Shown here: positions 14,374-62,393 of the stretch, in pieces
Position numbering within the stretch: position 1 is the first letter of the stretch
How the letters are laid out: the number at the start of each line of letters is the position of its first letter
Assembly (NCBI GenBank): GCA_037042915.1
Contig: CM073198.1
Span: 3,472,001 to 3,536,000, forward strand
Length of the DNA stretch: 64,000 nucleotides
Source of the DNA: Auricularia sp. M13
Lineage: Eukaryota > Basidiomycota > Agaricomycetes > Auriculariales > Auriculariaceae
Direction of reading: 5' to 3'
The notes under the pieces: model-generated
Databases searched by the model: none
What the model saw: the letters and a program-made list of their open reading frames with translations, nothing else
Told to the model about the DNA's origin: nothing
Position numbers and translations under genes: made by a program

Positions 14374-15748
14374 ATGCTGCACCAAGCAACACTAGACCCC
14401 ATGCGGGCGTACCGCGCCCGCAAGGACGCTGCCCGTCGCTCTGTCGTGTCCAAGTACACGATTATGGGCTTCATCTCGTCCGGCACGTACGGGCGCGTGT
14501 ACAAGGCCACTGGCAAGGACGACGGGCGCGCATATGCGATCAAGAAGTTCAAGCCGGACAAGGAGGGCGACGTGACGACGTACACTGGCATCAGCCAGAG
14601 CGCCATCCGCGAGATTGCAGTCAGTCCCTGTGTCGCGCCCGCTGCCGCCTTCGCTGCTGACGACGGCCGACGGGCAGCTCAACCGGGAAATCAACCACGA
14701 GAACGTGGCTGCGCTGCGGGAGGTGATACTGGAGGACAAGTCGATCTACATGGTGTTCGAGTACGCGGAGCACGAGTTCCTCCAGGTCATCCACCACCAC
14801 TCGCACACCCTGCGCTCCGCCATCCCCATCGCCATGCTCAAGTCGCTCACCTACCAGCTGCTCAACGGCCTGCTCTACCTCCACAACGCCCACATCCTCC
14901 ACCGCGACCTCAAGCCCGCCAACATCCTCCTCACCTCCGCCGGCGTCGTCAAGATCGGCGACCTGGGCCTCGCACGCCTCGCACACCAGCCGCTGCAGCC
15001 GCTCACACAGGGCGACAAAATCGTCGTCACCATCTGGTACCGCGCGCCCGAGCTGCTCCTCGGCGCGAAGCACTACAACAAGGCCGTCGACTGCTGGGCC
15101 GTCGGCTGCGTGCTCGCCGAGCTCGTCAGCCTGCGCCCCATCTTCAAGGGCGACGAGGCCAAGATGGACTCCAAGAAGACCGTGCCGTTCCAGCGCGACC
15201 AGATCCTCAAGATCGTCGAGGTCCTCGGCACCCCCGATGTCCGCGAGTGGCCCGGCATCGTCCACATGCCCGAGTACCGCAGCATGGCCCAGCTCGACGT
15301 CTACCCCAAGCAGCTCACCGTCTGGTGCCACAACCATAACCGCTTCCGCTCCCAGTCCGGCATCGACCTGCTCAAGCGCTTGTTCGAGTACGACCCCGAT
15401 GTGCGCATCACGGCGGAGGAGGCGCTCAGACACAAGTGGTTCACCGAGGACCCGAAGCCCAGTCGCAAGTGAGCCCTCTTTGCTTCCTCCCACGTTATGA
15501 ATCGCCCATTGACCGTTACCTGCAGCGTTTTCCAGTCCGTCCCGCAATCCCAGTGCCCTCCGCCGCGGCGCCTGTCGCCGGACGACGCACCCTCCATGGT
15601 CGCGCCGACACGAGGAGGCGTGGACTCGTCGAGGCCGGCAAGCGGAATCCCGCATTCCAAGCTCGAGGCCAACCGCGTCGGGCCGTCTGTACCGCCCACT
15701 GTCGGCGCCATCGAGCAGCCTCGGAGGAAGAAAGCGAGATTGGAGTGA
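14374..15748 (+). CDS. CDK8: Mediator kinase CDK8/SSN3, copy A
   Basis: The spliced protein has 419 residues, with introns at 14620-14677 and 15469-15525. The start LDPMRAYRARKDAARR and the kinase core are CDK8-like. Visible features are the glycine loop SSGTYGRVYK, catalytic lysine in YAIKKFKPDKEG, cyclin-facing helix SQSAIREIA, catalytic loop HRDLKPANIL, DLG in place of DFG, and WYRAPELLLG. The C terminus SQCPPPRRLSPDDAPSM and basic end PRRKKARLE are typical of basidiomycete SSN3. The kinase, with cyclin C, MED12 and MED13, forms the detachable Mediator kinase module. The second intron is needed to reach the C-terminal tail; without it the frame stops at 15472. A paralogue lies at 61088-62393. 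Confidence 0.93.
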
Positions 15749-16699
15749 AACTCCCATCGACGTTTGAGATTATGGGCGCACTGCGCAATCTGCCGCTCCA
15801 GCTGCACGTGACGCGCACTATATGCGAGGACATCGCGGCTCTTGGGACGGCCCTTCACCCGACTTAGTCGCATGGCGTACAGGTGCCAAGCGTTATCCGC
15901 TAACATTCGCGAAGCAACCGTGTTCGCGGTTGTTCATCTTCCTGACTCAACTTAAGCCGGCACACATATCTCAGCATGCCCCCTCCTATTGCTTCATTCT
16001 GTATGTCCAGGCTCCTTTCAATGTGTCGGTGCGCATACAAGACGAAATTCTCGTCGTCGTTGTACGGGATTACGCGGTCTGCGGTTTTATTCTCGTACCT
16101 CTTCCCCGATCTCACAGACGTTCTCCCATACTTAGCTGGATTCGCCTGGGACATACAGTAGCAACGCTGTGCAATCGCCATATGCATCCTACAGTACTTC
16201 GCAACGCGCGTTCAAACAACTGCGACGCAAGCCTCCGACATCGGCATGGAGCTCGCCATTACAAGGGCGGCCTCGTTAGATCATGGTTGCGGCTCTGCTT
16301 TCGTGCACCATCTCGCATTTCCGATCTTGCGCTCTGAGCTCCACACCCCACAGCCAGTCCTTTTCGACTTGTTTTCCTAGCTGGAAAACAAGTTGAAAAT
16401 CCTTCGGACGGATTTTCAACCCATATCCAAGGCATTTTCCGCTTTGATTTTCAACTGATTTTCCACAGTGGAAAACAGGTTGAGAAGGACTTGCTGCAGC
16501 GTGTGAGCTTGTTGTCACGAATCTTTTATTTATTTTTTCCCCTACCGACGGCACGTCAAAAGCTGGCACGCAAACAACAATGGTACAAAGCCACTTGATC
16601 GTCCAGCGAGTTCATATTTAATTCTGAGGATTCGTGCACTGGCCTAGCAGCGGAGTTTGATCTCGCGTTGTGGCGTTGTCCTTCAAGTTTTCCGCCATC
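15749..16699. other. Intergenic with nested hairpins
   Basis: No coding exon is visible between CDK8-A and TPR gene A. The notable content is the hairpin cluster at 16351-16496, annotated separately. Just before the TPR gene is an A/T-rich stretch (ttttatttattttttcccc, about 16520-16540). Confidence 0.5.
16351..16496. repeat. Nested inverted repeats (three hairpins inside an outer stem)
   Basis: Outer arms 16351-16377 and 16470-16496 pair over 27 positions with four mismatches by my count. Inside are acttgttttcc/ggaaaacaagt (16367-16377 with 16383-16393) and gttgaaaatcc/ggattttcaac (16392-16402 with 16410-16420). The third hairpin is ttttccac/gtggaaaa (16459-16466 with 16468-16475). The whole could fold as a multi-branched structure. 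It may be a small foldback element or a structured RNA; nothing decides. Confidence 0.7.
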
Positions 16700-19567
16700 A
16701 TGAGCACCGATTCGGCCGCCCTGAAAGACGCGGGAAACGCGCTGTTCCGCGAGCAAAAATTCGAAGACGCCTACGCCAAGTACGGAGAGGCTCTGGACGC
16801 GACCACGGACGCTGCAGCGCGCGCTGTGCTCTTCTCCAACAGAGCCCAGTGCGGCATCTCGTTGAAACGGTACTCTATGCATGCGCAGCTACTCTACTCC
16901 GACGACAGCAGCACGGCTGACGCGAGTTCCTCACTGTCACTGTAGATGGCAGGAAGCTAAAGTGGACGCGGCGGAGGCGCTGTGTGCGGACCAGAGTAAC
17001 CACAAGGCGTGAGCACCGAGCAAGATGTGGCTTTAATGAAATCGGGCACGCTGACTTGTGACTTGTGCGCATCACGATGAAGATGGCTCCGTCTCGGACG
17101 CACCTACGTCGTGAGTGCATTTGCGGGACAATGACGGCTTTGACATCGAATGCCTGCCAGGGCCTGCGCAACTTCGCGGAAGCCATCCAGATCTGCGAGT
17201 TCGCCGCGCACGCCACGCAAGACGCCGCGCTCGCCTCGGCGCTGTGGGCCGCTTCGCGCGATGCCAGGAAGGAGCAGAAGAATGCCGAGTCCGATGGCGC
17301 CAACCCGGACTTTCCGCGGCCGTCGCCTGCGCCGGAAGCGGTCTCCCGCGCCGTTCAGCTGAAGGAGGAAGGAAACGCTCTGGTCGGCGCGACGCCGCCC
17401 GACTTCAACGCCGCCTATGCCAAATTCTCGCTGGCGATCGCATTCGACCCGACATCTGCCATACTCTACTGCAATCGAGCATATGCAGCGAACAATCTGA
17501 AGCTGTAGGTTCCTTCGTGTGATCGCAGTCTTCCTTCTGAAATTGATTACTTATGTAGATGGGATACTGCGATTCTCAATGCGCGCAAGTCTATTTCCTT
17601 CGATGAAGCATACGTCAAGGCGTGGGCTAGGCTTGGAGCGGCGCATCTGGCAAGTCCAACTACCAAACTATGTAGATGGTGTGCTGATGTGGGCCATTCA
17701 GGGCAAGCGTGAGCTGCGCCAAAGCGAAGATGCATTCAAGCACGGCCTCCAACTCCTCGGAAGCAAGCCCCAACCCCTCTCGCCTGCCGATTCACGGTTG
17801 AAAGCAAGCATCGAACAGTCTATGCAGGAACTACGCCGCGAGACGCGCGTGGTCACAGGCAACAGAGCCGATTCAAACAACTTGCCTTGGGTTTTGGCCA
17901 ACCAAATCATCAGCCTGGCATTTAATCCGTCGGACCCTACGACGTGGTACTCCAGCGCCTGGGTCATTGTGTCGGCTGCCTCGGTATGAGGCGTTCTTGC
18001 ACTTAGTCCGCATGCTGAGGCCTGTTGCAAAGGACTTCGCGCAAGGCGTCCAGCACCTATACCAACTCCAAACGGCCGGGCCAGCTGTTGCAGGTTCGAC
18101 GGCGGTGCGTGTTCAATTCTTGGTGGTCCAGATCACCTCATATTATCCTTCAGACGTTGCAATTTTTGACAAATGCCATCACATGCGACGCGCGCGCTTT
18201 TTTCGTGGGCCGAGAAGACTTCTTCGAGAAGTACAAGCTGCAAGGTTCTATACCTTCTGTCGTACACAAGAACATCAAATGACTGACTCGTTGCAGTTAT
18301 GCACGAAGTGGGGGCCAGCAATGCATTCAGCGCAAAAGGGGCCCGGCCTCTTCTTGTAGCCGTAAAGGCGCGTCTACGAGCCGATGGTGGTTGGGGCGAC
18401 ATCTCCACTCGTACCGCACCGCGCAAAGCCCTCGCAACAACGATTAGGTTGGCAGTATTCGTGGCAAGTGACTTGGCGGTATTGTAGGCTAATTGCACGC
18501 AGGTCGTGGTTTTTAAACGCTTTCTTGCGCGAAAAGCTTGGTACAGTGGGATTGTCTCCGAATGCGGACGTTGTACTGACACGGTCGGACAGTTCAAGAC
18601 TATGACGAGGCGCTAAAACTATACAAACATACCGTCGAATTCATTGAGCTTGGAAGGCAAGAATGGGCAACGACCCCCAAGGCTGAGCGTGGTGTCATCT
18701 TCGTATGTGGTCCTTCTTCCCCGCAGGCTTACTCCTAGGATATTGATGGAGCGGCAGGAGCTCACCTTCCTGCTGGGTATCGAGCGCAACTAGTAAGCAC
18801 CGCATTCGCTTTGTCCAGCTGTACATCTCCTCATTAACCCGCTATAAGTGCTGAGTGTTTGCGGGCGAGGTACCTTGCCAACCTGCGTATGGGCCTACCA
18901 GACACTGCCGGTCTGCTCGAACAGATCAAGTCGCTTTCCGACAAGATGCTAGCACAATGCGCGACATTCTCGGCGGCTGACAGGGTACCCGATCATGGGA
19001 ACAGGAAACCCTCCTTCATCCTTCCTTTCATCATCTATCCTGAGGCAACGGCGCACGAGTTCGTACAGTCCTTTCTACTGTTGATGCTTCACCAATGATG
19101 TCTTGCACTTAGGAGCCTAGGCTTCTACTATTACCGAAAGGCTAAACTGTCAGGGAGATTCGATATGACAGCCATCACGGCCACTTTGCGCCAGAGTGCC
19201 GACCATTACGCGAAAGCGGCTGCGTTGTACCCAAAAGACGAAGAGATGCGCACAGGTAAGCTTGCAATAGCGTGCATCGCAACTTGGTGCTGATCGCTTT
19301 GCAGAGGTGCTATTCCAGCAGCTCACGTCGATGTTCCGCAGCGGACGACCTTTGCGCGAGACCCTGCCTATCTGCGACGAACTCGCCCAGAGCATCAAGG
19401 ACAAACAGCCCATTTGGCGAGCGTCTGCCAACTCCGATAACGGCAGGACGGACGAGCGGTACATGCGCTTCGTGACGTTCGCGCAGGACGTGAAGAAGGC
19501 GAACGCGAAAGGCGAGCTCACGCTGGATCAGCCTATCATCCCGGAAGTGCTGGAACAGATGGATTAG
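16700..19567 (+). CDS. TPR-repeat protein A
   Basis: The N-terminal TPR unit is clear: LKDAGNALFREQKFEDAYAKYGEAL, SNRAQ, W..A..DA.EAL. A second TPR cluster contains LKEEGNALV, YAKFSLAIAFDP, LYCNRAYAANNLKLW and KAWARLGAAHL. A long C-terminal region shared with TPR genes B and C has no known domain (DDR/WYSS, KARLRADGGWGD, FIELGRQEWA, YPKDEEMR, SMFRSGRPLRETLP). TPRs of this kind often bind chaperone C termini, but no partner is implied here. About a dozen introns; the one after AAHL starts with GC (gcaagt) where paralogue B has GT. The start follows the B gene and opens the first TPR helix. It lies tandem to CDK8-A and TPR gene B. Confidence 0.8.
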
Positions 19568-19839
19568 ACCAAATTGCCAGTGCAGCAACTGGCGTTGCGC
19601 ACAGAACGCGGCCGTGAATGTCTCCCGTCCGCGCGCAAAACACCTAGAGCTGGCCCCATCTTGATTGTCTATATACCTGCCGTGTTTATACCATTCAGAA
19701 TCGACGCAGATGCTTAGAAGATGGATTGATCATTTCGGGTCAAGCTGTTAGCTCCCGCGTTCACCTGCGCGTCAGTTAGATCGGGAGGATCGATTCGGAT
19801 GGAGTTTGAAATCGTGTTGATCCTCTCCCTCTTTTCATC

Positions 19840-22648
19840 ATGTCAGAGGATCCAATCGCACTGAAAGAACAAGGCAACGCGCATTTCGCTCAGAAACAGT
19901 TCGAAGCTGCATATGAAAAATATTCGGAGGCCATCGAGGCCATGAGTGACGCTACAGGGCGATCGGTTCTGTATTCCAACAGGGCGCAATGTTGCCTGCT
20001 GATGGAGAGGTACAGTGTGCCTCTTCTATGCTGTCATATCTTAAATTATCCTTTACAGATGGAAAGACGCGAAATTGGACGCAGCAGAGGCTTTGCAAAT
20101 CGACATTAAAAATGCTAAAGCGTGCGTTGGGAATGTGGCATGACAAGCTTGTTAAAGACGAGACAGATGGCACCGACTTGGAAAATCCTACGTTGTGAGT
20201 TTCATGCCATCGGCTTTCACCAGCTCACGGGGTCCAGGGTGCAGGACAGCTTGGCTCGGGTGTTCGAGTATTTCAGGTTGCGTCTCATCTTCTGCAAGGA
20301 GACAAGGCCGTTGTGGCCCAGTTCGAACATGCCATTCGCGATACAGAAAAGCTTGAAAGCTCTCTCGAAACTCCCCCGCCCCAACCTCTGCCGGAAGCAC
20401 CCTCTTCGGAAGCGGAGGCGCGAGCGACGCGTCTGAAGGATGAGGGCAACTCGCTCGTCAATTCCAATCCAAGTCCCACAAGCTATCAAACCGCATCTGC
20501 TAAATTCACGCTCGCGCTCGTATATGACCCGTCATCTGCCATCATCTTCAGTAACCGGGCTTATTGTGCTAATAACCTCAAGCAGTGAGCACATCTGACC
20601 GCTTGTCTGTTTCTGTAACGCTAAGCCGCGCATAGCTGGGATGAAGCCTTAGTGGATGCCCGGCATGCAATATCGCTTGACGAGAAGTTTCCCAAGGCAT
20701 GGACACGTCTTGGTGCGGCTTTACTGGTAAGACGATGCAGCCGGTGCCTGGACTTCTTGGGGTCTGATCCATCTTGATAGGGACAGCAAATATTCCATGA
20801 CGCTGAAGACGCGTTCAATCGCGGCCTTCAACTCCTGAATGACAAGCCGGGACCACTTTCTCCTGCGGACGAAAGACTAAAGTCCAGCATCGAACGCTCA
20901 ATCGCCGAACTTCGTCGGGGAACGCGAACAGTGAAAGGCGAAGTTGCAGATCCGTCTTCTGCGCCATGGGTCCTCGCCGACGCGGTCATTAACGACAACT
21001 TCGTGCCAGCAGATCCTACAACATGGTATTCGAGCTCATGGGTCATTTGCGCTGCTTACCGGGTATAAATCATTACCACTCAGCTGCGTACACACTCACA
21101 TTTATGATAGGATTTCGCACAGGGAGTTCAGCACATGTATCAGGCTCGTGTCGTTGGTGGACTCAGTTACGGATCGCTGGCAGTATGCACTCTGTCCTTC
21201 AACGGCGTCAGTGTTGATGATCTGTAGGTACTCGAGCGCATGTCGAACGGCTTGGTTACCGACAACCGTGCTTTCTTCGTCAATAAGCCAGACTTCTTTG
21301 AACGATACAAAGATCAAAGTAATTATCGACATCCCGCAATCGTACTAAGCAATTTTGATGCCTTTACAGTACTACACGAGCTGAACACGAGTCAAGGGTT
21401 CAGGCAAGATAGCCCTCAAGACCTACTTTCGGCCGTCAAAGCTCGTCTGCAAGCCGATGGAGGCTGGGGAACCTCACGCAACAACACATCAGCCCTCAAC
21501 GCGCTCTCTGTTACGATCCGGCAAGTACCTACTTGATATTATGTCTTGAGACTGGGAGGAATAACCGACGTGCAGGACGTGGTTCCTGAACGCATTTGTT
21601 GCGGAAAAATTGGGTATGGCGCTTAAGAGTAGTGTCTACTTTTCGGTAATCTCATTCTCTTCCAGCGCAAGACTTGGACAAGTCCTTGCTGCTCTACAAG
21701 AGTGTGATCGAATTTATCGAACTCGGACGACAGGAATGGGCAACTGTTCCGAGAGAGCAGAGAGGAAGTATCTTTGTACGCTCATCAGAGTTTCTCGGAC
21801 ATCTGCAGGCTTCTGACCACTTCAGGAACTTACCTGGCTGTTGGGTGTCGAGCGGAACTAGTGAGTACTGTTTATCGTAGCTTATACGATATGAGATTTA
21901 CATGGACGTAGCTCCGAGGCACTCAGAATTAGGTACAAGGCAAACCTGCGGATGAAAATACCCGATAGCAGCGGTCTTCTGGGGGAAATCAAAGCACTCG
22001 GAGAAAAGATGCTGGCACAAATAGCTACTTTCACAGAGGCCGACAGAGTCCCCGACCGTGAAGATCGCTTGCCTAGTTTCACACTCGCTTTCATGGCATA
22101 TCCTGAAGCTGCTGCTTATTCGTGAGCTCGACGAAAAATCCCTCAGCTTATCCCGTCTACAGTTACTGACCCGCTTCCTTCTTTCTGTAGGTGTCTCGGA
22201 TTTTACTATCATCACTTGGCTTGGATCAACAAGGATCCCAGTATCGCAATGCCGTTATTGGAGAAGGCTGCACAGTACTACGGTAGGGTTGCTGCAATTT
22301 ACCCGAAGGATGAAGAATTACGCACTGGTGCGTCTGGAAGTATGCCTGTCGGCAGGAATTGACAATGACTGGTCGGAAACAGATGCCCTCTTTCTCCAAT
22401 TGACATCGATGTTCCGCTGCGGCCGTCCCGTGCGCGAGTCTCTCCCGGTCAGCGATGAGCTCAAGCAGAGCATGGAGGACAAAAAGCGTATATGGCGCGG
22501 GTCTGCCAACCAGATCGGTGGCCAACTCGACAAGATGTACCAACAGTATGTCTGGTGGGCGGAGGATGTCAGAAAAGGTCTCGCAGAGGGGCAGTTCACG
22601 ATGAACGATCCTATAATCTCTGACTTAGTCCATCGTATGGACTGGTAG
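19840..22648 (+). CDS. TPR-repeat protein B
   Basis: A paralogue of TPR gene A, 272 bp downstream and with the same exon plan. It begins with LKEQGNAHFAQKQFEAAYEK and SNRAQCCLLMERW. The second TPR set follows (LKDEGNSLV, AKFTLALVYDPSSAIIFSNRAY), then the shared C-terminal region: WVLADAVINDNFVPADPTTW, DFAQGVQHMY, KARLQADGGWGT, FIELGRQEWATVP, YPKDEELRT, SMFRCGRPVRESLP. The stop follows HRMDW. The intron after LSVTIR has a GC donor (gcaagt), while the equivalent intron in gene A has GT. The copies are clearly diverged at the protein level, so the duplication is not recent. The function of the C-terminal region is unknown. Confidence 0.8.
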
Positions 22649-25347
22649 AGTGCGGACCTCCCGACGTGTTACACGATGTTCTAGCGGCACGTGATCTTTC
22701 GAAATTGCCGATGTTGCTTTTCGCTGGTGAAGTTGTAGGAGCAGCACGCACGTCGGTATCAATATGTCCGAGCTCGATGACGGCCCTCCTGGATGCAGAC
22801 TGCGCATTGTTTGCTTGTCTCGGGCGGCGATGACGGAAGGCAATTTCTGGTTTCTGACTGGTGTGAGCAATATGCTGTTCTCCTGCTTAAGGAAGATTAG
22901 GTTGCAGGGGACGAGGTTGATTCCCCACACGCCTGCAATGCCTTAGCTTGCGAATATTCCTGGCGGGAGAGCAGAACAGAGGAATCGAAGCAGAATAATC
23001 CGAGATAGGCTGGACATGTCATCTCCAGCCATCAACTCATGTTGAAACGAGGCAGCTTTACTCAGTGGCAGAAACGCAGCGGTAAAGGCACCTTAACATG
23101 CCAAAATTGCAGCACACACAAGTCAGCAAGAAGATTATACCTTAGATCGAGATCCTTGCGCTCGTGATGCTGCGTCAAGGGCAGGTGCCAGGGCCGTGAG
23201 GGCTCGCACCAGTATTGGTGATAACAGAGCGCCATGCAAGCTGCACGATAGGCCCGGAGTAAGCAATTGAAAGGGGTGCCAGCATTGCTCGCGCAATGTC
23301 TTCGGCTCGCAAAGCAGCCGGCACCGGGAGGAGATATATGCAGCCCTCTCCAGCACGAACCCAGCAATGTTTACTCCTTACCGTGGTCGCGACAACCGCG
23401 CAAGTGTTAGCCGCCAGGAGACATGACTCTCAGCCAGTCCGTTCAGTGCCTCAGAGCTGGACTGATCGATCACTGCGTGGCTTAGGCCTGCTGAGTGAGG
23501 AAGAGAGCGCGCGAAGGGAAGCTACGGCTGCTGATCTCAGATCGCTGTCTACGGTTTGTTCACCTCCGCATCAGCGTGCTGTATTGGCTGAAGGTCAGTT
23601 GGCTTGGTGCGGGGAACCCCATCCTCTGCCAACGTCAGGGAGGCCTAGAGCTAAATCGGGGTAAATTAGCTAGCCCCTCGGGCACCGTGCTCTTGAATTA
23701 CGAGCAGACAGAGCTGGACATCAACCAGCGCACAATCAAGCTCTCTTCCCCTCTGCGTCCGACTCCCGCCGAGGGTGGTGGCTCGTGATGTCAAATGTCC
23801 GCGGCTCCCTGCCTTTCGCGGGTTGATCACGATAACCGTCAGTAGCAGGCGTCTCTGCACGTATTGGTGGCATCCAAGCTGAGAGGCGGGAAGATCTATC
23901 CGGCGAAAAGGAGGAGCAGTCGCAACAGTGCGCCGAGGCCGCGGCACAGCAGCGTTTCGTTCGGTCCCTATAGTCTCAGAGAGGAACTTCGTCAGACGAC
24001 ACATACAGCAGCCGCGGCACGCGGGAAGGCAAAGGACTGCGCTTCCGGCGAGTGTTGGCCGCAGGCGACTGGTATCCAGTCGGCGAAGCGCACACTGGCA
24101 GGAGAACTCCAGGCAGGCTGGTGCGCGGCGCGCGAGAAGGGGCCCTCCCTCGATCTAGCGGCCCCGGAGAACAATCCTGTCACGTAGCGTAGGAAAAGAC
24201 GTCCGAATTTGGCCACGGACGCTGCAGCACAGGGTCTTCTTCGCGCAGAGCGGAGCAGTGGGCGCGCGATCCCCCGCTCACTATGGAAATTGCCGGCGTG
24301 TCTTGCTTTTGTTCCGCGCGAGTTCCGCTACGACGAATGATGTGGAGTTGTTGACCATAAACACGAACGCTGCATAGAGGAACAGACAAAAGGTGATACC
24401 CAACAGGAGGCCGAGCCGAGGCCTTGTGGTCTGCTCACTTCATGGTGTTAGGTTGGTCTCTGCCTGCGAGTAAACATAGAGCCTGCCGGAGCACTGTGCG
24501 GCGAAGAGCGAGATCTACGTATGCACTCAGAATGTCCACCGGCTATACCAGAATAAGGAATTCATGAAAGCAGGCCACCATGTTCGACGGGTCCCGGTGA
24601 GATTGCTGCGTCTGGCCCGTGTGACCATTCGACTTGAAGCCTATCATGGTACGAGTCGGACAACACAGGCACGATGTTTCCCTATTACGACACTGGCCAC
24701 TACAGCACGAACGCCGGTCGTCGACGGGAAATGAAAGCCGAGGGCTTGAGTTCATCATAGGTGCCGGCGCGCTTCTTCTCATCAAGAGCATCCGAGGGAT
24801 ACAGCGACGCAGCAGGGTCGCGGCCATGCCCACAGTACGGACAATTGCGGGATATTGCAAGAATAGATGAGCTTTTGGACATTGCAACAATCCCGCAGAA
24901 AGATCGGCCAAGGCAAAATCGTGTTGTCTGCGCACTCCACTCAGACAGTGGTGTTTATCCAAAGCAACGCCACTTGCACAGAATGTCATAGCATGACCAG
25001 CAGCGCCATATTTCTCCAGTGTGCCGTCTGAGGGGGCCCAAACAAGCGTCTAGATTGGCAGGATGCACAATGAGGCATTTAGCAAGTCGACGATAGTGAA
25101 ATCAGCGAAATACTGTGGGCAGCAGGGCAGGGACCGATCCAGTCGAGCGATGAATAGGATTGACCAGGCCTGTCAATGGGATACATAATCTAGGTCCAAT
25201 CGGCCGCTGACCGCGGGCGGTCGGGCAGCCCGGGACAGGCGGGGTCGGGGCGCGCACGCTGCGCGACTTGCGCTGCACATCGAAGCACGACAAGGTCGAA
25301 GTCCTGACCCTAGCGCATCGAAGAATGGCTTGTTCGTACCCCGCAAT
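22649..25347. other. Gene-poor stretch
   Basis: About 2.7 kb in which short ORFs on both strands show no family motif, no hydrophobic core and no plausible spliced continuation. I saw no transposase or reverse-transcriptase motif, poly(A) tail or long repeat. It may be degraded repeats or a long 3' region of TPR gene B. Confidence 0.45.
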
Positions 25348-25830
25348 CTAGGACGACGAACCCGGTTTTGTCGCGTTATCACCTGGTGCAACTGAATGGC
25401 TGTCTTCGCTTCCCTGTGCGAGCGACTGCTCAGCCGGCGAGAGGGACCAGAACGCTCGTCGTTGACGGTCCATCCAGCGGCGTGGCTACAGACGCGTAAA
25501 CAGTTGGTTCGGATATAACAGACTACAAAGTATGGCTTACCGGGCTGAACACATGCTCGTGGTCGCCGAAATCCACGAAGAACACGCAGTAGAATATTAC
25601 CGCTGCAGATTACCACGTGAATAAATTCACACGCTGACAAGCTGGGTGTACGCACAAGGAATGATGATCCAGTTGGCTGCGCGCGAGTACTTGGCCGCGC
25701 GCGGTGTTGGGTACATGGACGCCGGCTCGTTTTGGAACATGCGCCGGTTGAAGGCCGCGCGCGGGTCGAGCTCGCGCGGGTTGGTCGGATCCGCGCTAGG
25801 CGTCAGACGGCGCGGCGCGTCGTTCGGCAT
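25348..25830 (-). CDS. Small single-pass membrane protein, unknown function
   Basis: Three exons (25656-25830, 25541-25602, 25348-25485) join in frame to 124 residues; each intron is 53-55 bp with clean GT..AG. The N terminus is hydrophilic (NPRELDPRAAFNRRMFQNEP, then MYPTPRAAKYSRAANW). One membrane segment follows, IIIPSVIFYCVFFV, then DFGDHEHVFSP, a basic stretch PPRRWMDRQRRAFW and a polar tail. The frame continuity through two introns supports a real gene. The small size with one membrane span recalls accessory subunits of mitochondrial inner-membrane proteins, but I do not recognise it. No single unspliced ORF covers it. Confidence 0.6.
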
Positions 25831-41200: not shown

Positions 41201-42266
41201 TGTGTAGACAGCTTCGCGCTTGTTGTTGAGAATGACAGCACACGACGCCCACCTGCGCATCTGCCACGCCACCGGAGCAGCGATGTGGAGGATCCCACGC
41301 GGGCCTAGCCTCGTCACCAGGCACTGAAGGAGAGGTTCGAGAGCGAGAGGGTGAGTCGGGAGTGGGAAGCATCCGTTGTTTGTGCATTGTGTTTTCGGTG
41401 TTTGTAAGTATTTGTCGCGCGCTCGGAACCTCTCCTTAGAGCCTGGTGAATTTTGTAGAGGCGAGCACCGCAGGGAGCCTTCGCGACACAACTTCCCTCA
41501 ATCGCCTCAAAATCAAACATATGTGCTATTAGGAGTATTTAAAAAAAATTTGCAGGACTACATGATGAGTATGAAAAGCACAATTGGCCGAATGAGGTGT
41601 TCCGGCAGTACATTGAGCGGCCACAGTGCATTGCACTGTGGGGTTCAAAAGCGGCCCAAATGGCCTTTTAGATCATATTATTGAGGTATAACACGATTTG
41701 GTCACTTGAAATGAACTGTAACCTTTGCATTGGCAAGAGGAAGTGGAAGACGGTGTAAACCGGTCCACCAAGCCACACCACATTTTGGATCATTCCGATA
41801 GTCTATACCTCTACAAACTATCTCAGAGCGTAGTAATAGGCTTAATATAGCACCTCAAATTTTTCAAAGATTTGTGGTATGACGAAGCCTCCCTGCGGTG
41901 CTCCTCTCTACAAGATTCACCAGACCTCTAGGAGAAGTCCGAGCCGCGACCAAACACTAACCAAACAACGAAAAGCCGGAGCGGCCGGACCGACTAGAGG
42001 TCTGGTTACGAGACTAACGCGGAGAGGTTCCGAGCGCGCGACAAATACTTACAAACACCGAAAACACAATGCACAAACAACGGATGCTTCCCACTCCCGA
42101 CTCACCCTCTCGCTCTCGAACCTCTCCTTCAGTGCCTGGTGACGAGGCTAAAGCAGGTCTGGGAACGAGTGACGAGCTGCACGCGATGATCCAGCTTTCA
42201 TGCCCGGGATCCACAGTGCGCCAACACGCCACGGCGTCCCAGCGCTAGCTAGGCCACGAGACCAGC
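38248..42266. other. Gene-poor region with inverted-repeat element
   Basis: About 4 kb without a supported gene. The longest open frames (250 codons at 38329-39081 and 202 codons at 39330-39938) are GC-driven and contain no recognisable motif. The only structure found is the inverted-repeat element at 41306-42150. Confidence 0.5.
41306..42150. mobile_element. 845-bp element with 130-bp perfect inverted terminal repeats
   Basis: Positions 41306-41435 and the reverse complement of 42021-42150 are identical over 130 bases, starting tagcctcgtcaccaggc. Beyond this the arms stay similar (the pair tccctgcggtgctc and gagcaccgcaggga), but the right arm has an extra block of roughly 100 bases containing a degenerate copy of the arm. 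The AT-rich centre (41520-41880) differs in base composition from its surroundings. Short frames in both arms translate to the same 40-residue C terminus only because the arms are identical. It is most likely a non-autonomous foldback/MITE-type element; I could not identify a target duplication. Confidence 0.65.
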
Positions 42267-52877: not shown

Positions 52878-53471
52878 GCGTATCGATCTGCCTTTATCTC
52901 CTCTGCATGTGTTGTTGTGCTGTTGTCTCGGATCCGGACGTCTGGACGCTCGTGTCTGCCCTGCTGTCTCTGTCTCGCCCCTCTTGCATGGTATCGTTAT
53001 TGCTGCGCTACTCGCCCTCCACCTCGCCCTCGCCCTCTCACACTCACAAATTCCCCACGCTCTCTACTTCAGAAAACGCACTCCAAACGGACTGTATCTA
53101 CTCACGCTCCCCTGCCCCGATGCCTGCCTGCTGCCTGTTGCCACCCGCCACATTCTTTCACACCATCGCACGTGCGGACGCTTTTATTGCTTACCACCCT
53201 TTTTCTCCCGCATGTCTTTTCTTGTTACTACATTGCATTTTCTTGACTGCCGAATACCTGACCAATACATTTTTTTGGAGGAATCTGCTGCTCGAATTCC
53301 AGTCTGTATGCGGCCTGACGATCGAGGACGGCGCAGATCCGACGTGCGCGTCGCCCGTTTTGGCCAGCGTGTTGCAATTGCAGACTCCGATGCCCTCGCT
53401 CCTTGTCCCCTGACCCCTACATACTGTACCTTCCCGCCGCCGTTGATTCTCACCCGCAGCGACGTTGCAGG
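52878..53471. other. Intergenic
   Basis: Pyrimidine-rich sequence between the protease and the leucine-rich-repeat gene, with no coding exon seen. It contains the first gene's 3' UTR and the second gene's promoter. Confidence 0.55.
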
Positions 53472-55548
53472 ATGCCGGTGCCCACGGCGGCCATGCGCCC
53501 GATATTCGACGCGGACAACCCGATGTACTGCGCGCGCTCGCCACTGGCGGCGCGCGTGCGCCCGTCCAGCTTCATGCGCAAGCTGCTCAGGCTGCAGAGC
53601 GCGCAGGAGTCGCCGCTCAAGACACGCAGGCTGGCAGGCTTTGCGAGCAGCCTGAGCGAGACGCTCGCCTCGTCGCAGTCCTCGTCGGCCGCCACGGACG
53701 TCGCCCTGCCGCGCTTGGCTCGGTCGCCGTCACCTACGAAGCGGAAGCCTCACCGGGACTCGAAGACGGCTCCGGCGCCGGCGATCGTGCTCTCGAAGCC
53801 CATGCTCGGGCTCCTCAGTGGTGCTGGCAGTGGCAGCCCGCCGAAACTGCTCGTCGCTGCCCAGGGCCAATCGTCCCTCGGCGTCCCGGCCAACACGTTC
53901 TACGGATATGGCACGAAGCGCAAACGCACCGCGGACTCTCTGCCTCTCAGCGGCAGCAACAACAAACGCGCGCGCAAATCGAGCGGCAACTCGTCATTTC
54001 CCGTCTCGCGCTTGCCACCAGCTTTTGGTTTAGGTCGCATTCCTTCTACCTCATTCAACCCTCAGCCGCATTTCTCCGCCGCTCTTCCATCCCCGCCTTA
54101 CGCTCCCGCCAGTGGGTCCGTTCGCGGTCGCGAAGAGCACGTCCTCAGGCCGAAGAATACGACGTTCGAGCCGATCAAGCAGGACGTCAAGGCGTTGCAA
54201 TGTACCGATCCCGAACACCTGACGGCTCTGAACCGCGTTGTCGAACTTCAAGGTTTGTCTCGCTGCTTTATAGTAGCTAATTGGAGTTGGTGCTTACTTG
54301 GTTATAGCCGAGCTTTATGGCTTCGAGCCCGGCGCAGAATCGCAGCCCGACATCGAGGCCTTCGTTGACGAATTGGGTTGCCTCCTGCTCGATATCCGAC
54401 TGAAGCAGCAGCTCCAGCCACTTTCAACGCTGACACACCAAGATATGGCTAACTTCCTTGGGGAAAAGGGTGCGCTTCTCTCGGCGCATATACTGTATTC
54501 GTGACATCGTGACACTAAATGCATGATCACTGGCAGGCTACTTCAGCACCCCAATGACTCTCGCGATGTTTCGCAGGGCCAACGTCGAGAGCATCGACCT
54601 CCGCCTATCCCTCAATCCCGAAGATACAATGCTGACGCCTGACGTAGAAAATATCCTACAAGGTGAGCTTTCCCGATGCCCGGGCGCGAGCATAAAACTG
54701 ACCTTACTTACGGTCAGTATTCACGCACCCTGGAAGCTTTACTCGACTTTATGAACTGAACCTAAACGATGTCGCGCTGACCGAAGAATGCTTTATGCTG
54801 CTCCAACCCCTTCGATCGACGTTGCAGATTCTTTGGCTCAAACGTACAGGAACGACAGATGCCATGTTCGTCTCGACTCTCGACAAAGTCGTCGCAATTT
54901 CCTTCTTTGCTGATATGCGGCCAAGGCTCCCGCACCTCGTGTGCCACCGCAAGCTCACCAACCTCCGTCTCACCGGCAACAACGGCGTCACGGACGAGGG
55001 CGTGACCAACCTGCTGTACTTGACTGCGCTGAAGTATCTCGAACTGGACCACACGAGCTTGACGATGGACGGCCTTAGACGCCTCGCTGAGGGCATACTG
55101 AACCAGGAGCGCAAGATCACGCTCGAGATCCCGAGGGAATGTGACGATTATATGAACTGTGTGTCGTCCTGTCTCTCCTGGCAGTGCAAATTACTCGACC
55201 GCTGATGCTCCGGCGGAAGCCCTGCACACGCAGTATCTCGTCCACCCGTCCGCGCCTCTCATCACCGACCCCGGCGCGTGCGGGTTCCTCGCGCTGCCGG
55301 CGCTGAAGAAGAACCTTGCGGAGCATGCAAAGTTCAACGACGCAGTATTAGTCAAGGGGTCGAGGGGCGAGCTGTGCGAGGCGCTCCGGGCGCTTTTGGA
55401 GAGGCGGAGGAGGGATATGATGGTCAGGGCTGTAATGTGGCAGAGGGACGATGAAGAGACGGTGCAGAGCGGTGAGCCTATAGATGGAGAGCTTCAGGAG
55501 GACCAGAAGGACCAGGAGGACGGGGAAGATGACCTGTATTCTGCTTAG
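53472..55548 (+). CDS. Leucine-rich-repeat protein with basic N terminus
   Basis: At least four introns (54253-54307, 54470-54536, 54663-54717, and one near 55156-55210 whose exact border I could not fix). The N-terminal 230 residues are Ser/Pro/Lys-rich with nuclear-localisation-like patches (TKRKRTADS, NNKRARKSS). The second half has leucine-rich repeats: LYELNLNDVALTEE, LQILWLKRTG, LTNLRLTGNNGVTDEGV, LKYLELDHTSLT. The C-terminal helix is acidic (EDQKDQEDGEDD). This resembles the AMN1/RAD7-like LRR class but lacks a visible F-box. A nuclear adaptor role is only a guess. Confidence 0.72.
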
Positions 55549-55722
55549 TTGACCGGTGAGAGCTGTATGTTGTAGCTTGCTGTTGTAATCTGGCTGTATC
55601 AATATGCTGTTGTTCTTCTACTCCGCGGAGAACCGCCGGGCATACAACGCCGAACAGCCGAAGCGCGGTCCCGAATCGGTAAGACTCACTTGGGAGTGGA
55701 CCACCACCTTGAACGCTGGACA
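55549..55722. other. Short intergenic region
   Basis: 174 bp between two plus-strand genes, so promoter and terminator must be compact here. Confidence 0.5.
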
Positions 55723-56312
55723 ATGGCCAACGGCAAGCGAAAGAATGCGACGGAAGCGGTAGAGCCGCACTTCCAGAGGGAAGAAATCGCCTGGCCAGGG
55801 CCGCGCCCAGCGCCGTATCACAGAGAAGGGCAAGGACAGCTGAAATGGCGGCCGAACGTTAACTACTGCGCGAATGGCACAGGGTGGGCACACGGAACGT
55901 AGTGAGTGCAGAGCTTCAAGAGCCTCGATTGCTGATATTTTGCAGTTTGGAAGCCCTGAATCCGGAATCGCGCTACCGCTCGATCTGCCTGACATGTCGC
56001 GTCTGGCGGCGCGAGCCGTTGCTGGGGTGGCAGGAGCAGCGACGCCTCCACTGGCGCGCGTATCACCATCCGGACGGGTCGCGACGGTCGAGCGAGGAGG
56101 CGGCGGAGCTGGTGAAGCGCATTCCTGAGATCAGGCCGTCCGCGGCGTGCGCGACGTGTGGGCAGCGCTGGACTCTCGTAGATGCGCGATTTGAGGCGCC
56201 TCCGCAGGGCAAGCCGGAGAAGGAATGGAGGAGGCGGTATGAGGCGTGGTTGGAGCTCCCTGGAGCGCGTCAGTTGGCGGCCCAGTTTAACACTCATGAT
56301 GAGGCTGAATGA
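55723..56312 (+). CDS. Small CxxC protein, unknown function
   Basis: Two exons (intron 55899-55945) give 180 residues. The N terminus is MANGKRKNATE; a Trp/Pro-rich stretch (EEIAWPGPRPAPY) follows. Two cysteine pairs 70 residues apart (CLTC in YRSICLTCRVW and CATC in AACATCGQRW) could bind one zinc ion. The rest is rich in Trp, Arg and Glu (WRREPLLGWQEQRR). No known family was recognised. The frame is open through the splice and codon use looks like its neighbours. The start is the first ATG in the exon. Confidence 0.6.
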
Positions 56313-57056
56313 TGTTACGAAGAGAATATATCATCATGTTGCGTGTCTCCGAGGACTTTATAGGAAGCAGACGCGATACCAAACCCCGCTGAGTGTCACG
56401 CTGAGTCGGAAGTGTGTACACCACACACACTGAGACAGATCGCAACGAAGAAATGCACCTGGAGCAATTTGAAAACGGAAAAGCAATAATTACTGTACAG
56501 TACACTGTTGCCCGGAATCCGGTTCGTTAACAATGGTTGACGCATTGATGCTGTCCGGAGTGACCGGATCCTGCATCTTGAATTTCTTTTGCATGATACC
56601 TCGCCTTGCCGCTTTTGCGAAGGTTACGAGTGATTCCCATCGTCCGAAAGCACCTGTCGCAGCAAGCGCAGATGCTCGCCAAATGCCGCGAGCCGGACCA
56701 ATGGAATCCGCGAGTGAATCACATAGAGGTAGCGTCTTGGCTAACGGCTGAGAGGTCTTGAACATCACGTCGATGAGCTGATACAATGCCTCTGCAAGAT
56801 CGGCACTCCTCAAAAATAGTCGAGACACGGGATACTTCTGAGTTGACGTACCGCAGCGCATCTCCTCGTCCCTTGGGTAAAGCGCGATGGCCTTTTGAAA
56901 AGATTCAGTAGACTTCAGCAATAAGTCCTGCCTTGCAGAAGAGGACTCCTGGGCTTTAGTCTTGAAATAGAACGCAATCGCGCTATGCAAACGGCCAAGT
57001 GGTGATGAGTAATTTATCGCACGACCGGGATGAGAGGGCAGGAGGCATACCTGTGC

Positions 57057-57063
57057 GCTACGG
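57057..57063. repeat. Target-site duplication, copy 1
   Basis: The 7-mer gctacgg directly precedes the CCCAGTCG end of the inserted element and is repeated at 58303-58309. Confidence 0.8.
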
Positions 57064-58302
57064 CCCAGTCGAGGTCGGTCTGGCGGAAGACCTCACAAAC
57101 CGACGGTTTTTGCTGACAGACGACGTCTGCTGACGTTTGGCGAGAAGTGTTCAAGATGTTGCCTCTAGACATGTGATTGAAAGGACACTGTGCGTCATAA
57201 TTGGACTTTATTGGAACTTGTAAGTTATTTGGGAGTGTGACAGTTTCAAAAAGGACAAGTTAATTGTGTCGCAGTGCAAAGCCTACAAAAGCACGTGCAG
57301 GCGGTTTGTGACTCCGCTACGCGCTCTCTTCCTCTTCCCTCCACAATCTATCGCTCCGAGCGTCCGCTCAATATATGGTGCCTTGACTACTCGTAGCGCA
57401 GAGCTGCTGCTATCACAGCAACAGCTGTCCAGACGTACGCCCAGTTCAGCAGCAGTGCATTGGGCATCTGCTCATTGACTTCTGCTCGTTGTGTCGCGCA
57501 GCGCTCCCCCGCGGGAATCCAGCTTGATTACGTGCACGCAACCCGAGGCGCACGGTGCGTTCTCGCGTCGCCTTTATATCGCCACCGCTCATTGCTATCG
57601 TATCTAGGAAGCAGGCCGACGCCCTGACGGCGAACACCTGCAGACCGTGACAGCGCCCAGGCCCGTGTGCGTACGGCAGTTTCTTTCTGTGTCATACGCG
57701 GATTCAACTGATATTTGACTGGGTAGATCATATTCATCTTGACTCGCACATCGCTGTGAGTGTGCATTTGTGCATGCCACACGGCTGCAAAAACTGATTT
57801 CGACCAGTGTCTGCCAGTGTTCGCGCACCCAGGTCACCGTTATCACGCAGTGCGCACATCGCACGATTTGCCTCTTGTTTATATATTGTCCCGCGCGGGC
57901 TTTCCTACTGCTCGTGCCGTCGCTCCCGACTGGACCTATTTCCCCTCCCCCCCCCTTCACTTCCCTCTTCCCAACTGGATTTTTCCCTCTCTCGTGTACT
58001 CTGTTCCTGTGCAGTCCTCACACGGCAGTACATGTGTTCTTACTGCGTAATATATGCATTTGCTACTCCTGTCTTGGGCTGCCGGAAAGTGTCGAACCGG
58101 CAAACAACAGGAAGCAAGTAAGACCCCGCAGAATAAGGCAGTTTCTGGCGGTTGGACTATGTAGCTTTAAACGTCTGCAGCCGCCATCTTCTGCAAGAGT
58201 TATGGCTTGAAATCGGTACAAATCACGACGCTTTCCGACATTTTTTGCTGGGACTAAAACCGTCGGTTTGTGAGGTCTTCCGCCAGACCGACCTCGACTG
58301 GG
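57064..58302. mobile_element. 1,239-bp DNA transposon-like element with 47-bp perfect terminal inverted repeats
   Basis: The ends 57064-57110 and 58256-58302 are perfect inverted repeats of 47 bp, beginning CCCAGTCGAGGTCGGTC. Direct copies of gctacgg flank them at 57057-57063 and 58303-58309. The interior has no supported transposase ORF, so this is a non-autonomous (MITE-like) element. A 7-bp duplication and long inverted repeats do not match one superfamily cleanly; hAT usually makes 8 bp and Mutator about 9 bp. The element sits inside an exon of the third TPR gene. Confidence 0.85.
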
Positions 58303-58309
58303 GCTACGG
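58303..58309. repeat. Target-site duplication, copy 2
   Basis: The 7-mer gctacgg directly follows the inverted end of the inserted element and matches 57057-57063. Confidence 0.8.
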
Positions 58310-60829
58310 CTTCGGGATAGACGATGAACGTGATCACGTTTGGCTCCACCTTGCGTTGTAGCGGATTTTTCTCAGCTTGCGGGATGTTTCCCACTTCCAC
58401 CAAGATTTTGCTGGCAATCTCCCTGATCGTCTCGAGTAACGTTGGTGCGTTGGATATCTCTATGCGAGCGCGCATTGCATATCTTTCGACGCAACACTCC
58501 AAGCTGTATATGGACACGTCAGCTGAGATACATACCGCAGCGTAGTCACCTACTATGCCCGCAGAACAAGCAAGAAAAATGTGCGCTCCTGAGAGAGGGA
58601 GAGGAAACACTTTGTCACTGCAGTTTACAACTGGCTGCGACACACTAACCAGGATCGCGCCGCGGAATTCGCGAGAAACATTCGCCCATTCTTGGCGACC
58701 GAGCTCGAGGAATTCAACAGTCGCTTGGAAGAGGGAGCAAGCGCGGTCATAGTCTTCGTCTACACAGCAAGGTGGTCAATTTGCTGCGGAGTTTCCGCAT
58801 CGTCAGATTCTCACCGAATTTCCATAGGAGCGTGGCCTGCAGAATCCAAATTCTACAAGTTGTAAATTTATTAAACGAGCTGGGAAGCCGACAGACCCAT
58901 CGGCGTACCTAACAGTGATGGTCATGGACTTGCGCGCGGCCACGGGATGCGTCGCAGTGGCATCCCACCCATTCTGTTCCCGGAGTCGAGCTTTGACAGC
59001 TCGCATGAGCGCACGAGGCTCGGACTCATTGAAAGTGCGAGAGAGTCTTGACTCAATAGCCACTGCAGATAATGAGCATATACGCCCATTAGGAGGAAGG
59101 AGACTTACTGCCTTGCTCTATACGTTGCTTCAAGTCATCGTGTGGAGCATGGAAGACACGCATATCTGACACCAGCCCGTTGGTAATAGGAAGTATAGTC
59201 TGAACCGCTGTCAAAATACTACGCTGGTCGCTGGCAACATATTCGAGAGACCATACCTCTGAACCTGTCATCTGCGCTAACCCTGCGAGGGACTAATAGC
59301 CCGTTAGTGAGTAGGATGCATTGGACATGATAGCTATATGCGCTCACTCCACCCGGAGGGAGATTTCTAGCCATGCGCTGGAACATAGGACCAAACTGCG
59401 CCAATTAATACTGAAGGTCGGGATTAACGTTTGCCAGCGGTCCCGCACCTGTCCGAATGCCATTTCCTCGTTGCCGTGCACTCGAGTTTGGTATAGCAGC
59501 GCAACACCAGCTGAGAACTCCTGGAGTCGGGTCAGTAGCTAAGCTCTGAGCGTTCAAGCGATTCATGGATATCGCATGTCACCTTGTAGGCACCATTTAT
59601 GGGCCAGGCACTGGTATACCAAGAGTTTCTGACCCAAAGGTTAACGTGCTCGACATGTTGCGCGGCGAGCACCCAAGGGGCATCAGTTTTGTGGGCATGC
59701 AACCCAGACGCGCGTCGAAGGCTGTTTTCAACGTCGCTCTTTGCCTGATCGATATCCTTGTAAAGCCTCTCGTCCGCGGGCGACCATGGTTTGGGTTTGT
59801 CTCTCATACGAAGGAGTCCTTCATTCAGTATCTCGAAACTCTCCAAAAGCTTTTTTTCGCTCTATGAGTTATGTATGAGCTAGATGAAAGTCTACAAACG
59901 ATTGCGGAATCATATGACTGACCAGGTATGCCCTGCCCGTGAGCAAATATGCCTTGTGATAATCCTCGTCGATATGAATCGCCATTTTCCCGTCTTCGAT
60001 AGCTTCGCCCCACCTAATTGCTCTTCAACGGACCAGCGGAAAGCTGACGTATTGGCACTCACATTTCGCGGACCACGCACAGACGCGCGCGATTGAAATA
60101 CAGCACCGAAGAAGAGCGGTCGAAGGCCAGTGCGAGCGTGTACTTGGCATACGCAGCCCGCCAGCTGAGCTGATCAGTTGGGTTCTTGTTGACAATGTCG
60201 AGGAGCACGTCACCCTCCTGCTCGAGTCGCCGAGATAATGCTGCGCGGGCGGGATCGGACGGCGGGTCGCACGGGGGCAACGCGTATGGCGTGTCATTGA
60301 ATGCATGTCGCGATTCGCGCACGGCCGCGTCGAGTGCGCGCATGAGCGGCGGGTTGTCCTTCGATTCGTGACAGCCGATGCTGTAGGCCCGCCCGGACGC
60401 GCCGAAGTCTTTCATGCCCTTGCACAGTATCAATACTGGTCGAATACGCGTCGTTTTCGTGTCATGGTCGACTCACATCATATGCTCGACCCAGGCGAAG
60501 CCATCTGGTGTAAGTTCAGCCACAGTGGCGGAAGGGATTGTGGCGCCGGTGCTCACGCTTTGTGATAGCTGGGATCAGCGACGAGCGCGTCAGCCGCGTC
60601 GTACCGCGCGTCGTCCCATCTGCAGCCGTTAGACGTGAGCGTGCTATGCAGCTCACGCGCACCGCTTGAGAAGCAGGCATGTCTGTGCCCGGTTACAGTA
60701 CAAGACTGCAGTATCCTTTCCGCTCGCGACGCCGAGGGCTTCGGTGTACTTTGCGTGGGCCTCTACGTATTTTCCTTGCGCGAACAGGCGGTTGGCCTCC
60801 TCTTTCAGCTCGAGTGCATTAGCAGTCAT

Positions 60830-61087
60830 GGAAGAGTCGAAGTTTGAGCAAAGACACAAGAACAAACACGAATCAACTTCTCATAATCCCGCGTTTCGCG
60901 CTCGGTATCCCGCCTCTTAAGTTAAGTACATACATATGTATGTGATAAACGTATTTGCAAGGCGACGGCAGCAAAATGGTACACTGCGTGCCAGCGGAAT
61001 CCGGAACGCGCCTGGATGAGCTTCATTGCTCGAAGTGGTCAGTTCACTCTGATGTGACTGTGACGATCTCATGGGACAGTGGAATGC
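60830..61087. other. Intergenic CDK8-B to TPR gene C
   Basis: 258 bp between two minus-strand genes, with an AT-rich stretch (tacatacatatgtatgtgat) containing a short palindrome near 60930. Nothing coding is seen. Confidence 0.5.
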
Positions 61088-62393
61088 TCATATACGGTTT
61101 GCCTCTAGCTTGGAATGCGGAAGAACCCCGAATGGTGGTACGGAGAAGTCCAGGCGTTGCATCGACGCAGTCACGGATGGCATATCCTCCTGCTTCCAGC
61201 GTCGCGGTGGAGGGCACTGGGAGTCAGGCATCTCATGAAATACACTGCGGGGTTCTTTCGGTCAGCAAGCCCCAATATCCCGCATGAGCAATGCAAACTT
61301 ACTTGCGGCTGGGTTTCGGGTCGCTGGCGAACCACTCGTGTCTGAGCGCTGCGCCCGCCGTAATCCGCACGGCGGGGTCCCATTCCAGAAGGCGCTGCAA
61401 CAGGTCAACACCCAATGCTGAACGCAGGCGTTTGCCGTCCTGACACCACTGCACGAGCATCTTGGGGTAGCCATGGAGCTGCGCCGCGGCCATGCTAGGA
61501 TAATCGGGCATGTCGATGATGCCCGGCCAGTATCGCTCGTCCGGCGTGCCGAGGACCTCGACTATCTTCAGCATCTGGTCGACTTGGAACGGTTCGGGCT
61601 GCCCTGGGTCCTTCACCTCCTCGCCCTGGAAAATGACACGCAGGCCGGCGAGCTCGGCGAGCACGCAGCCGACGGCCCAGATATCAATGGCCTTATTGTA
61701 GTGATGTGCGCCGAGCAAGAGCTCGGGCGCACGGTACCAGATGGTCACGACAACCTTGTCGTACTTCGTCAGTCGCTGAAGCGGCTCGTGCGCTATACGC
61801 GCCAGGCCCAAATCGCCGATCTTGACGACGCCGCCAGAGGTCAAGAGGATATTTGCCGGCTTGAGATCACGATGCAGGATGTGGGCATTGTGCAGGTAGA
61901 GCAGACCGTTTAGAAGCTGGTAGGTAAGGGATCTGAGCATGATGGTGGGGATCCTAGTGCGCAATGTGGCCGAGTGGTGATGGATAAGCTGCAGCAAGTC
62001 GTGGTCCGCGTACTCAAAAACCATGTAGATCGATTTATCCTCTAGAATCACTGTTCTCAGAGCAACAACGTTCTCGTGGCCAATTTCCCTGTTAATCTGA
62101 AGACGAGGTCAACTCGGCGTGGCGAACGAACGGTGAGCCACACTGACTGCGATTTCTCGGATGGCGCTCTGAGTGAGGCCATTGTAGGTGTTGGGGTCCG
62201 TGTCCTTCTCCGGTTTGAACTTCTTGATGGCATACGCGAGGCCGTCATCGTTTCCTAAAGCCCTGTATACGCGTCCGTATGCGCCAGACGATATGAAGCC
62301 CAAGATCGTAAACTGCGAGACGACCGAGCGGCGAGCAGCGTCCTTGCGAGCGCGGTACGCCCGCATGGGATCCAGGGCATCCTGGGGCAGCAT
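61088..62393 (-). CDS. CDK8: Mediator kinase CDK8/SSN3, copy B
   Basis: The spliced protein has 398 residues (introns 61245-61302 and 62097-62147, at the same positions as in copy A). The start LDPMRAYRARKDAARR and the core are shared with copy A: SSGAYGRVYR, YAIKKFKPEKDT, TQSAIREIA, HRDLKPANIL, DLG, WYRAPELLLG. All catalytic residues are present. The divergence is spread over the C-terminal lobe and the loop after LRVIFQGEE. After SQCPPPRRWKQEDMPSV the tail ends at LPHSKLEANRI, while copy A continues about 20 residues to a basic PRRKKARLE. This is a second full-length Mediator kinase gene, in opposite orientation to copy A. Confidence 0.9.

What the first reader, a model, noticed from the sequence alone, without database searches (positions are those of the whole stretch)
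14374..62393. Two full-length CDK8/SSN3 Mediator kinases in one window
Copies at 14374-15748 and 61088-62393 have identical intron positions and the same N-terminal LDPMRAYRARKDAARR, catalytic loop and SQCPPPRR tail. Fungi normally carry one CDK8; vertebrates have CDK8 and CDK19. Both copies keep all kinase residues, so a division of labour within the Mediator kinase module is possible.
Basis: partly seen in the sequence, partly recalled or inferred. Interest (0 to 1): 0.78.

Follow-up and report, generated by a model that had tools for sequence, protein, structure and literature searches.

The report
Two old CDK8 Mediator kinase paralogues
This fungal genome carries two intact, anciently diverged copies of the Mediator kinase CDK8, duplicated together with a neighbouring gene, one slow-evolving and one fast-evolving, which resembles the vertebrate CDK8/CDK19 pair and could test how such pairs split their work.

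Summary
Confirmed: the window holds two intact CDK8/Ssn3 genes at exactly the stated coordinates, in opposite orientation, with the same two introns. Both match yeast Ssn3 best. No third was found in the 52-Mb genome. They are not an assembly duplicate or alleles: 73% protein identity, synonymous sites saturated (dS about 2.3), omega about 0.07. An adjacent TPR gene was copied with them: two TPR genes follow CDK8-A, one follows CDK8-B; 17 of 19 genome matches of this TPR family lie here. So it is an old inverted duplication of a block. Both copies keep the residues for cyclin C binding and Med12 activation; cyclin C and Med13 gave one locus each and MED12 one full gene. Best reading: A is the standard Mediator kinase, B an alternative subunit kept by selection and competing for the same partners, as CDK19 does. 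Expression, binding and spread in relatives are untested.

The parts
14374..15748 (+). CDK8-A: slow-evolving CDK8/Ssn3, 419 aa, 3 exons (14374-14619, 14678-15468, 15526-15748)
   Evidence: phmmer best hit yeast SSN3 389.6 bits, human CDK8 258.3, CDK2 218.3
61088..62393 (-). CDK8-B: faster-evolving CDK8/Ssn3 paralogue, 398 aa, 3 exons (62393-62148, 62096-61303, 61244-61088), lacks A's C-terminal 22 residues
   Evidence: phmmer best hit yeast SSN3 325.9 bits, human CDK8 235.3, CDK2 216.2
16700..19567 (+). TPR1: TPR-repeat gene directly downstream of CDK8-A (approximate model, 693 aa)
   Evidence: Pfam TPR_17 30.9 bits
19840..22648 (+). TPR2: tandem paralogue of TPR1 (approximate model)
   Evidence: Pfam TPR_1 28.3 bits
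56544..60829 (-). TPR3: TPR paralogue directly downstream of CDK8-B; conserved blocks in the same order as in TPR1/2, interrupted by an insertion
57064..58302 (.). 1239-bp element with perfect 47-bp terminal inverted repeats flanked by GCTACGG on both sides, inserted inside TPR3; two other full copies in the genome at 98-99%

Best explanation
An old DNA-level duplication of a block (CDK8 + TPR gene) put a second, inverted CDK8 45 kb away on the same chromosome. Shown: both genes are intact, share both introns, are the only CDK8 loci found in the genome, bear the mark of strong purifying selection while synonymous sites saturated, and keep the N-terminus that recognises cyclin C and the residues through which Med12 activates CDK8. 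One locus each was found for cyclin C and Med13, and one full-length MED12. Inferred: CDK8-A (slow, full tail, GC3 0.90) is the standard Mediator kinase. CDK8-B (faster, shorter tail, altered C-lobe loop, GC3 0.72) is an alternative kinase subunit that competes with A for the same cyclin C-Med12-Med13 scaffold, as CDK19 does with CDK8 in vertebrates, probably with a narrower or conditional role.
For: Gene models and shared introns. Two CDK8 loci: 5 of the 99 listed matches belong to these two genes; the next best scores 93.9 bits at 46% identity. omega 0.072, dS 2.26, lnL -2379.2 against -2511.6 for omega=1 over 395 codons. In 2000 neutral simulations per rate, 44 stayed stop-free at 0.1 substitutions per site, 5 at 0.2, 1 at 0.3 and 0 at 0.47. 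Counterparts of yeast R206, R285, R309, H341 and Y342, which PMC10666765 (passages) names as T-loop and Med12 contacts, are kept in A and B; T343 is N in both. Residues 7-22 are identical. TPR paralogues lie in mirror order. One locus for MED13 and cyclin C; one full MED12.
Against: No expression or binding data. B could act outside Mediator. B's faster change (29 against 10 unique sites with SSN3, chi-square 9.26; 18 against 9 with human CDK8, chi-square 3.0, not significant) also fits weaker constraint, and the last 45 aligned codons are much less constrained (omega 0.28). The searches for MED12, MED13 and cyclin C could miss diverged paralogues. No relative's genome could be searched, so age and retention are judged from one genome. 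The selection estimate is pairwise and does not separate the two branches.
Confidence: 0.6

Rival explanations
1. CDK8-B is a redundant duplicate in slow decline: it shed its C-terminal tail, evolves faster, has weaker codon bias, and its neighbour TPR3 has already been hit by a transposon-like element.
For: Branch 0.27 against 0.057 for A (kinase core only); 29 against 10 unique changes; missing 22 residues; element inside TPR3; GC3 0.72 against 0.90.
Against: Frame and splice sites are intact after saturation of synonymous sites; pairwise omega 0.051 for codons 1-240 and 0.054 for 241-350. If 83% of dN fell on B and dS were split evenly, omega for B would be about 0.12 (my arithmetic; about 0.32 with the NG86 values).
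Confidence: 0.2
2. CDK8-B has left Mediator and gained a separate role, possibly cytoplasmic, since it lost the basic C-terminal cluster.
For: Loss of RRKKAR and a changed C-lobe segment (DSKKTVPF in A and yeast, DPGQPEPF in B).
Against: The cyclin C and Med12 contact residues are kept; only one cyclin C locus was found to pair with. That the basic cluster is a nuclear signal is inference.
Confidence: 0.17
3. The two copies are an assembly duplicate or two haplotypes of one locus.
For: Other parts of this genome hold near-identical pairs: 99.8% between L039 and L040, and nearly equal-scoring matches on C9 and C12.
Against: 74.6% DNA identity, saturated synonymous sites, opposite orientation on one contig, no paralogous matches between the outer flanks within the window.
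Confidence: 0.01

Closest known systems
Fungal Ssn3/Srb10 (CDK8)
   Same: Best phmmer hit of both copies; same N-terminal YRARKD stretch, DLG motif, T-loop of equal length, HY of the Y-loop, and an NVF ending of the kinase domain.
   Different: Two copies instead of one; B lacks the end of A's tail and the DSKKTVPF loop.
Vertebrate CDK8/CDK19 pair
   Same: Two CDK8 paralogues and, as far as found here, one cyclin C; CDK8 and CDK19 enter the module mutually exclusively (PMC6340071, start of abstract) and no cyclin C paralogue has been identified (PMC8540245, passage).
   Different: A separate duplication (inference); mammals also have MED12L and MED13L (PMC8540245), whereas here one MED13 locus and one full MED12 were found. 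The fungal pair lies 45 kb apart in an inverted block with TPR genes.

Membership tests
CDK8/Ssn3 Mediator kinase | Closer to Ssn3/CDK8 than to other CDKs | tested here: met
   A: SSN3 389.6, CDK8 258.3, CDK2 218.3 bits; B: 325.9, 235.3, 216.2. A 12-row tree joined A with B (99/98) but left their fork with SSN3, CDK8 and this genome's other CDK-like kinases open, so the tree itself does not decide.
CDK8/Ssn3 Mediator kinase | Catalytic Lys, Glu of the C-helix, HRD and DLG/DMG motifs, APE | tested here: met
   AIKK, SAIRE, HRDLKPAN, DLGLAR, YRAPE in both
CDK8/Ssn3 Mediator kinase | T-loop without the phosphorylated Thr, with Arg triad and Y-loop for activation by Med12 | tested here: met
   R79, R158, R182, H214, Y215 in both; 31 residues from DLG to APE as in yeast and human; roles from PMC10666765 passages. 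That the position of CDK2 T160 is Asp here uses the CDK2 sequence from recall.
CDK8/Ssn3 Mediator kinase | N-terminal helix that recognises cyclin C | tested here: met
   YRARKD..R.SV aligned with yeast 58-94 in both; function of the helix from PMC10666765
CDK8/Ssn3 Mediator kinase | Physical association with cyclin C, Med12, Med13 | not testable with these tools
   needs co-purification
CDK8/CDK19-type specialised pair | Both copies expressed with distinct targets | not testable with these tools
   no RNA or phenotype data
CDK8/CDK19-type specialised pair | Both copies under long-term selection | tested here: inconclusive
   Pairwise omega 0.072 over 395 codons at dS 2.26 and an intact frame point to selection on both, but the estimate is from one pair in one genome and does not separate the branches.

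The most novel reading that the evidence does not exclude
This lineage has rebuilt control of its Mediator kinase by copy number. Two CDK8 paralogues compete for one cyclin C, while a tandem array on another chromosome carries five extra 5' copies of MED12, each beginning with the Med12 N-terminus (the CDK8-activating end) and lacking the rest of the protein. Short Med12 fragments could switch on a CDK8 paralogue (perhaps B) away from Mediator. The array is seen; any product or effect of it is speculation.
Probability: 0.06. Interest if true: 0.85.

Novelty: new member of a known kind. Interest (0 to 1): 0.42.

Why it matters
CDK8 is single-copy in the few fungi I could check in print. A long-retained pair with otherwise single partners would be a natural experiment on whether Mediator kinase paralogues specialise by sequence, by expression or by competition for the scaffold, a question that is harder in mammals, where MED12 and MED13 have paralogues too (PMC8540245). 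I found no report of a fungal CDK8 pair in the searches, of an open-licence library that misses most subscription journals; of those results I saw listings and starts of abstracts, plus passages of a few papers.

Tried and rejected
Assembly duplicate or alleles: rejected (74.6% DNA identity, saturated dS). Another CDK family: rejected by bit scores; the small tree left the deeper forks open and had two long rows. Retrocopy: rejected, both introns are shared. Third CDK8: none among the matches (100 of 144 candidates scored). Duplication of the whole kinase module: not supported, since MED13 and cyclin C gave one locus each and MED12 one full gene plus truncated copies. Whole-genome duplication: not tested directly; some other kinases do exist in pairs. 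A hidden basic tail of B in another frame: not seen in 330 bp. Med15 family search: nothing, uninformative because the controls were silent too. Rfam on 4 of the 7 stretches of the MED12 array: no match. Pfam on 30 window ORFs found only kinesin, Kelch, zf-CRD (below cut-off) and a MON1-type longin match, nothing bearing on CDK8. Biopython YN00 failed with a math error, so I wrote a codon ML. My gene predictor, trained on the two CDK8 genes, recovered CDK8-A but missed the last exon of CDK8-B, so the TPR models are approximate. The literature on basidiomycete CDK8 copy number was thin.

Full report
Observation. Spliced models give 419 aa for copy A (+ strand) and 398 aa for copy B (- strand), each with two short GT-AG introns at the same alignment positions. 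289 of 395 aligned residues are identical. They behave as real genes: codon ML gives omega 0.072 with dS 2.26, and omega=1 is worse by 132 log units; the cruder NG86 gives dN 0.18 and dS 0.94. By segment omega is 0.051 (codons 1-240), 0.054 (241-350) and 0.28 (last 45). The dS values are near or past saturation, so they say 'old', not a date.

Identity. phmmer against PDB chains puts yeast SSN3 first for both, ahead of human CDK8 and CDK2 (A 389.6/258.3/218.3 bits; B 325.9/235.3/216.2 bits). The review PMC10666765 (passages) names yeast R206, R285, R309 and the Y-loop H341-Y342-T343 as the parts through which Med12 stabilises the T-loop. By alignment A and B both have R79, R158, R182, H214 and Y215, and both have N in place of T343. 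The T-loop has the same length as in yeast and human. I infer that both can be activated in the normal way. A 12-row tree of the kinase core joins A and B firmly but leaves their fork with SSN3, CDK8 and this genome's other CDK-like kinases open, so class membership rests on the bit scores and motifs.

Copy number. A whole-genome search with copy A (52.1 Mb, 14 contigs) listed 99 matches (100 of 144 candidates scored); 5 are exons of these two genes and the best of the rest scores 93.9 bits. MED13 gave one locus. Cyclin C: of 11 Cyclin_N matches eight were fetched and their exons read; the one at C1:2232342 matched yeast and human cyclin C best among PDB chains, and a search with it found only itself. 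I judged the other seven by eye, not by search, and two matches (C5:3017804, C4:2148211) were not examined. MED12: six PF09497 matches, of which only the last continues into a full model of 1449 aa. So within the kinase module only CDK8 has two intact copies, as far as these searches see.

Origin. A self-comparison of the window shows that CDK8-A is followed by two TPR genes and CDK8-B, in mirror orientation, by one. The models are approximate, but conserved blocks run in the same order. A genome search with TPR2 gave 19 matches, 17 of them in these three genes and 2 weak ones elsewhere. Hence CDK8 and TPR were most simply duplicated as one block, in inverted orientation, and the A side gained a second TPR copy (the order of the TPR events is inference). 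The self-comparison showed no further paralogous genes in the window, only a short repeat near TPR1 and inverted-repeat elements.

Asymmetry. With yeast SSN3 as outgroup (349 sites) B has 29 unique changes and A 10 (chi-square 9.26); with human CDK8 (330 sites) 18 and 9 (chi-square 3.0, not significant). Of 153 sites identical in SSN3 and human CDK8, 36 differ in A and 44 in B. On the kinase-core tree the end branches are 0.27 (B) and 0.057 (A). B replaces the DSKKTVPF segment shared by A and yeast and stops after KLEANRI, losing 22 residues that include RRKKAR. GC3 is 0.72 in B and 0.90 in A. The TPR gene next to B is interrupted by a 1239-bp inverted-repeat element with a 7-bp flanking repeat, and two near-identical copies lie elsewhere, so that insertion looks recent. 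B itself is intact: neutral simulation leaves 44 of 2000 sequences free of stops at 0.1 substitutions per site and 0 of 2000 at 0.47.

Mechanism. Most likely A is the standard Mediator kinase and B an alternative subunit using the same cyclin C, Med13 and full-length Med12, comparable to CDK8/CDK19, which enter the module one at a time (PMC6340071, start of abstract). Shown: intact genes, pairwise selection, conserved contact residues, single partner loci found. Inferred: competition for the module, difference of role. A slow decline of B or a role outside Mediator remain possible.

What is known. Passages seen: one CDK8 in A. nidulans, with one counterpart each in S. cerevisiae, S. pombe and N. 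crassa (PMC3591445); one kinase per conserved CMGC subfamily except ERK1 in Fusarium, CDK8 not named (PMC6001611); CNAG_06086 taken as CDK8 in the basidiomycete C. neoformans, no count stated (PMC6372802). I found no printed fungal CDK8 pair (listings and starts of abstracts). The duplicate is a new member of a known kind. Its interest is moderate: old retention with single partners is unusual, but function is untested.

An adjoining curiosity. MED12 has five truncated 5' copies in an array upstream of the full gene; the last four sit in units of about 9.7 kb, the first is set apart by 11.7 kb. Four of the five have a GA in place of a GT splice donor and a stop at codon 232 of the spliced reading; one (c5) has neither within the compared 379 codons. 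Units c2, c3 and c4 are 99.9% alike by BLAST, c5 98.8%. Each copy keeps the Med12 N-terminus. Whether any is transcribed is unknown; the array may also be partly an assembly effect.

Noticed in passing
genome contig C9:3038010-3090263 (L026, L022-L025, L027, L028-L034): Array with five truncated 5' copies of MED12 (about 1.6 kb each; four in units of about 9.7 kb); the full MED12 gene follows the last unit. Four of five carry a GA splice donor and a stop at codon 232, one is open over 379 codons.
   Followed up: partly
57064-58302: 1239-bp element with 47-bp perfect terminal inverted repeats and 7-bp flanking repeat GCTACGG inside TPR3; two further full copies on C7 and C11 at 98-99% and weak relatives on C4 and C5.
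   Followed up: yes
41306-42150: 845-bp element with perfect 130-bp inverted repeats at its ends, no obvious flanking repeat.
   Followed up: partly
L019/L020, L014/L018, L016/L017, L039/L040: Other kinase or cyclin gene pairs in this genome: CK2-like pair 504 kb apart on C5 (95.5%), GSK3-like pair (75%), PHO85-like pair (78%), cyclin-domain pair inverted on C1 (99.8%) (family names by my reading of the motifs).
   Followed up: partly
contigs C9 (0.55-0.84 Mb) and C12 (0.10-0.37 Mb); C11 0.41 and 2.06 Mb: Kinase matches of nearly equal score in mirrored order, suggesting retained haplotype sequence or large recent duplications in the assembly.
   Followed up: no
62552-63701: Gene divergent from CDK8-B whose product contains WFYRQKG, to my eye like the third helix of a homeodomain, but with no Pfam match.
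   Followed up: partly
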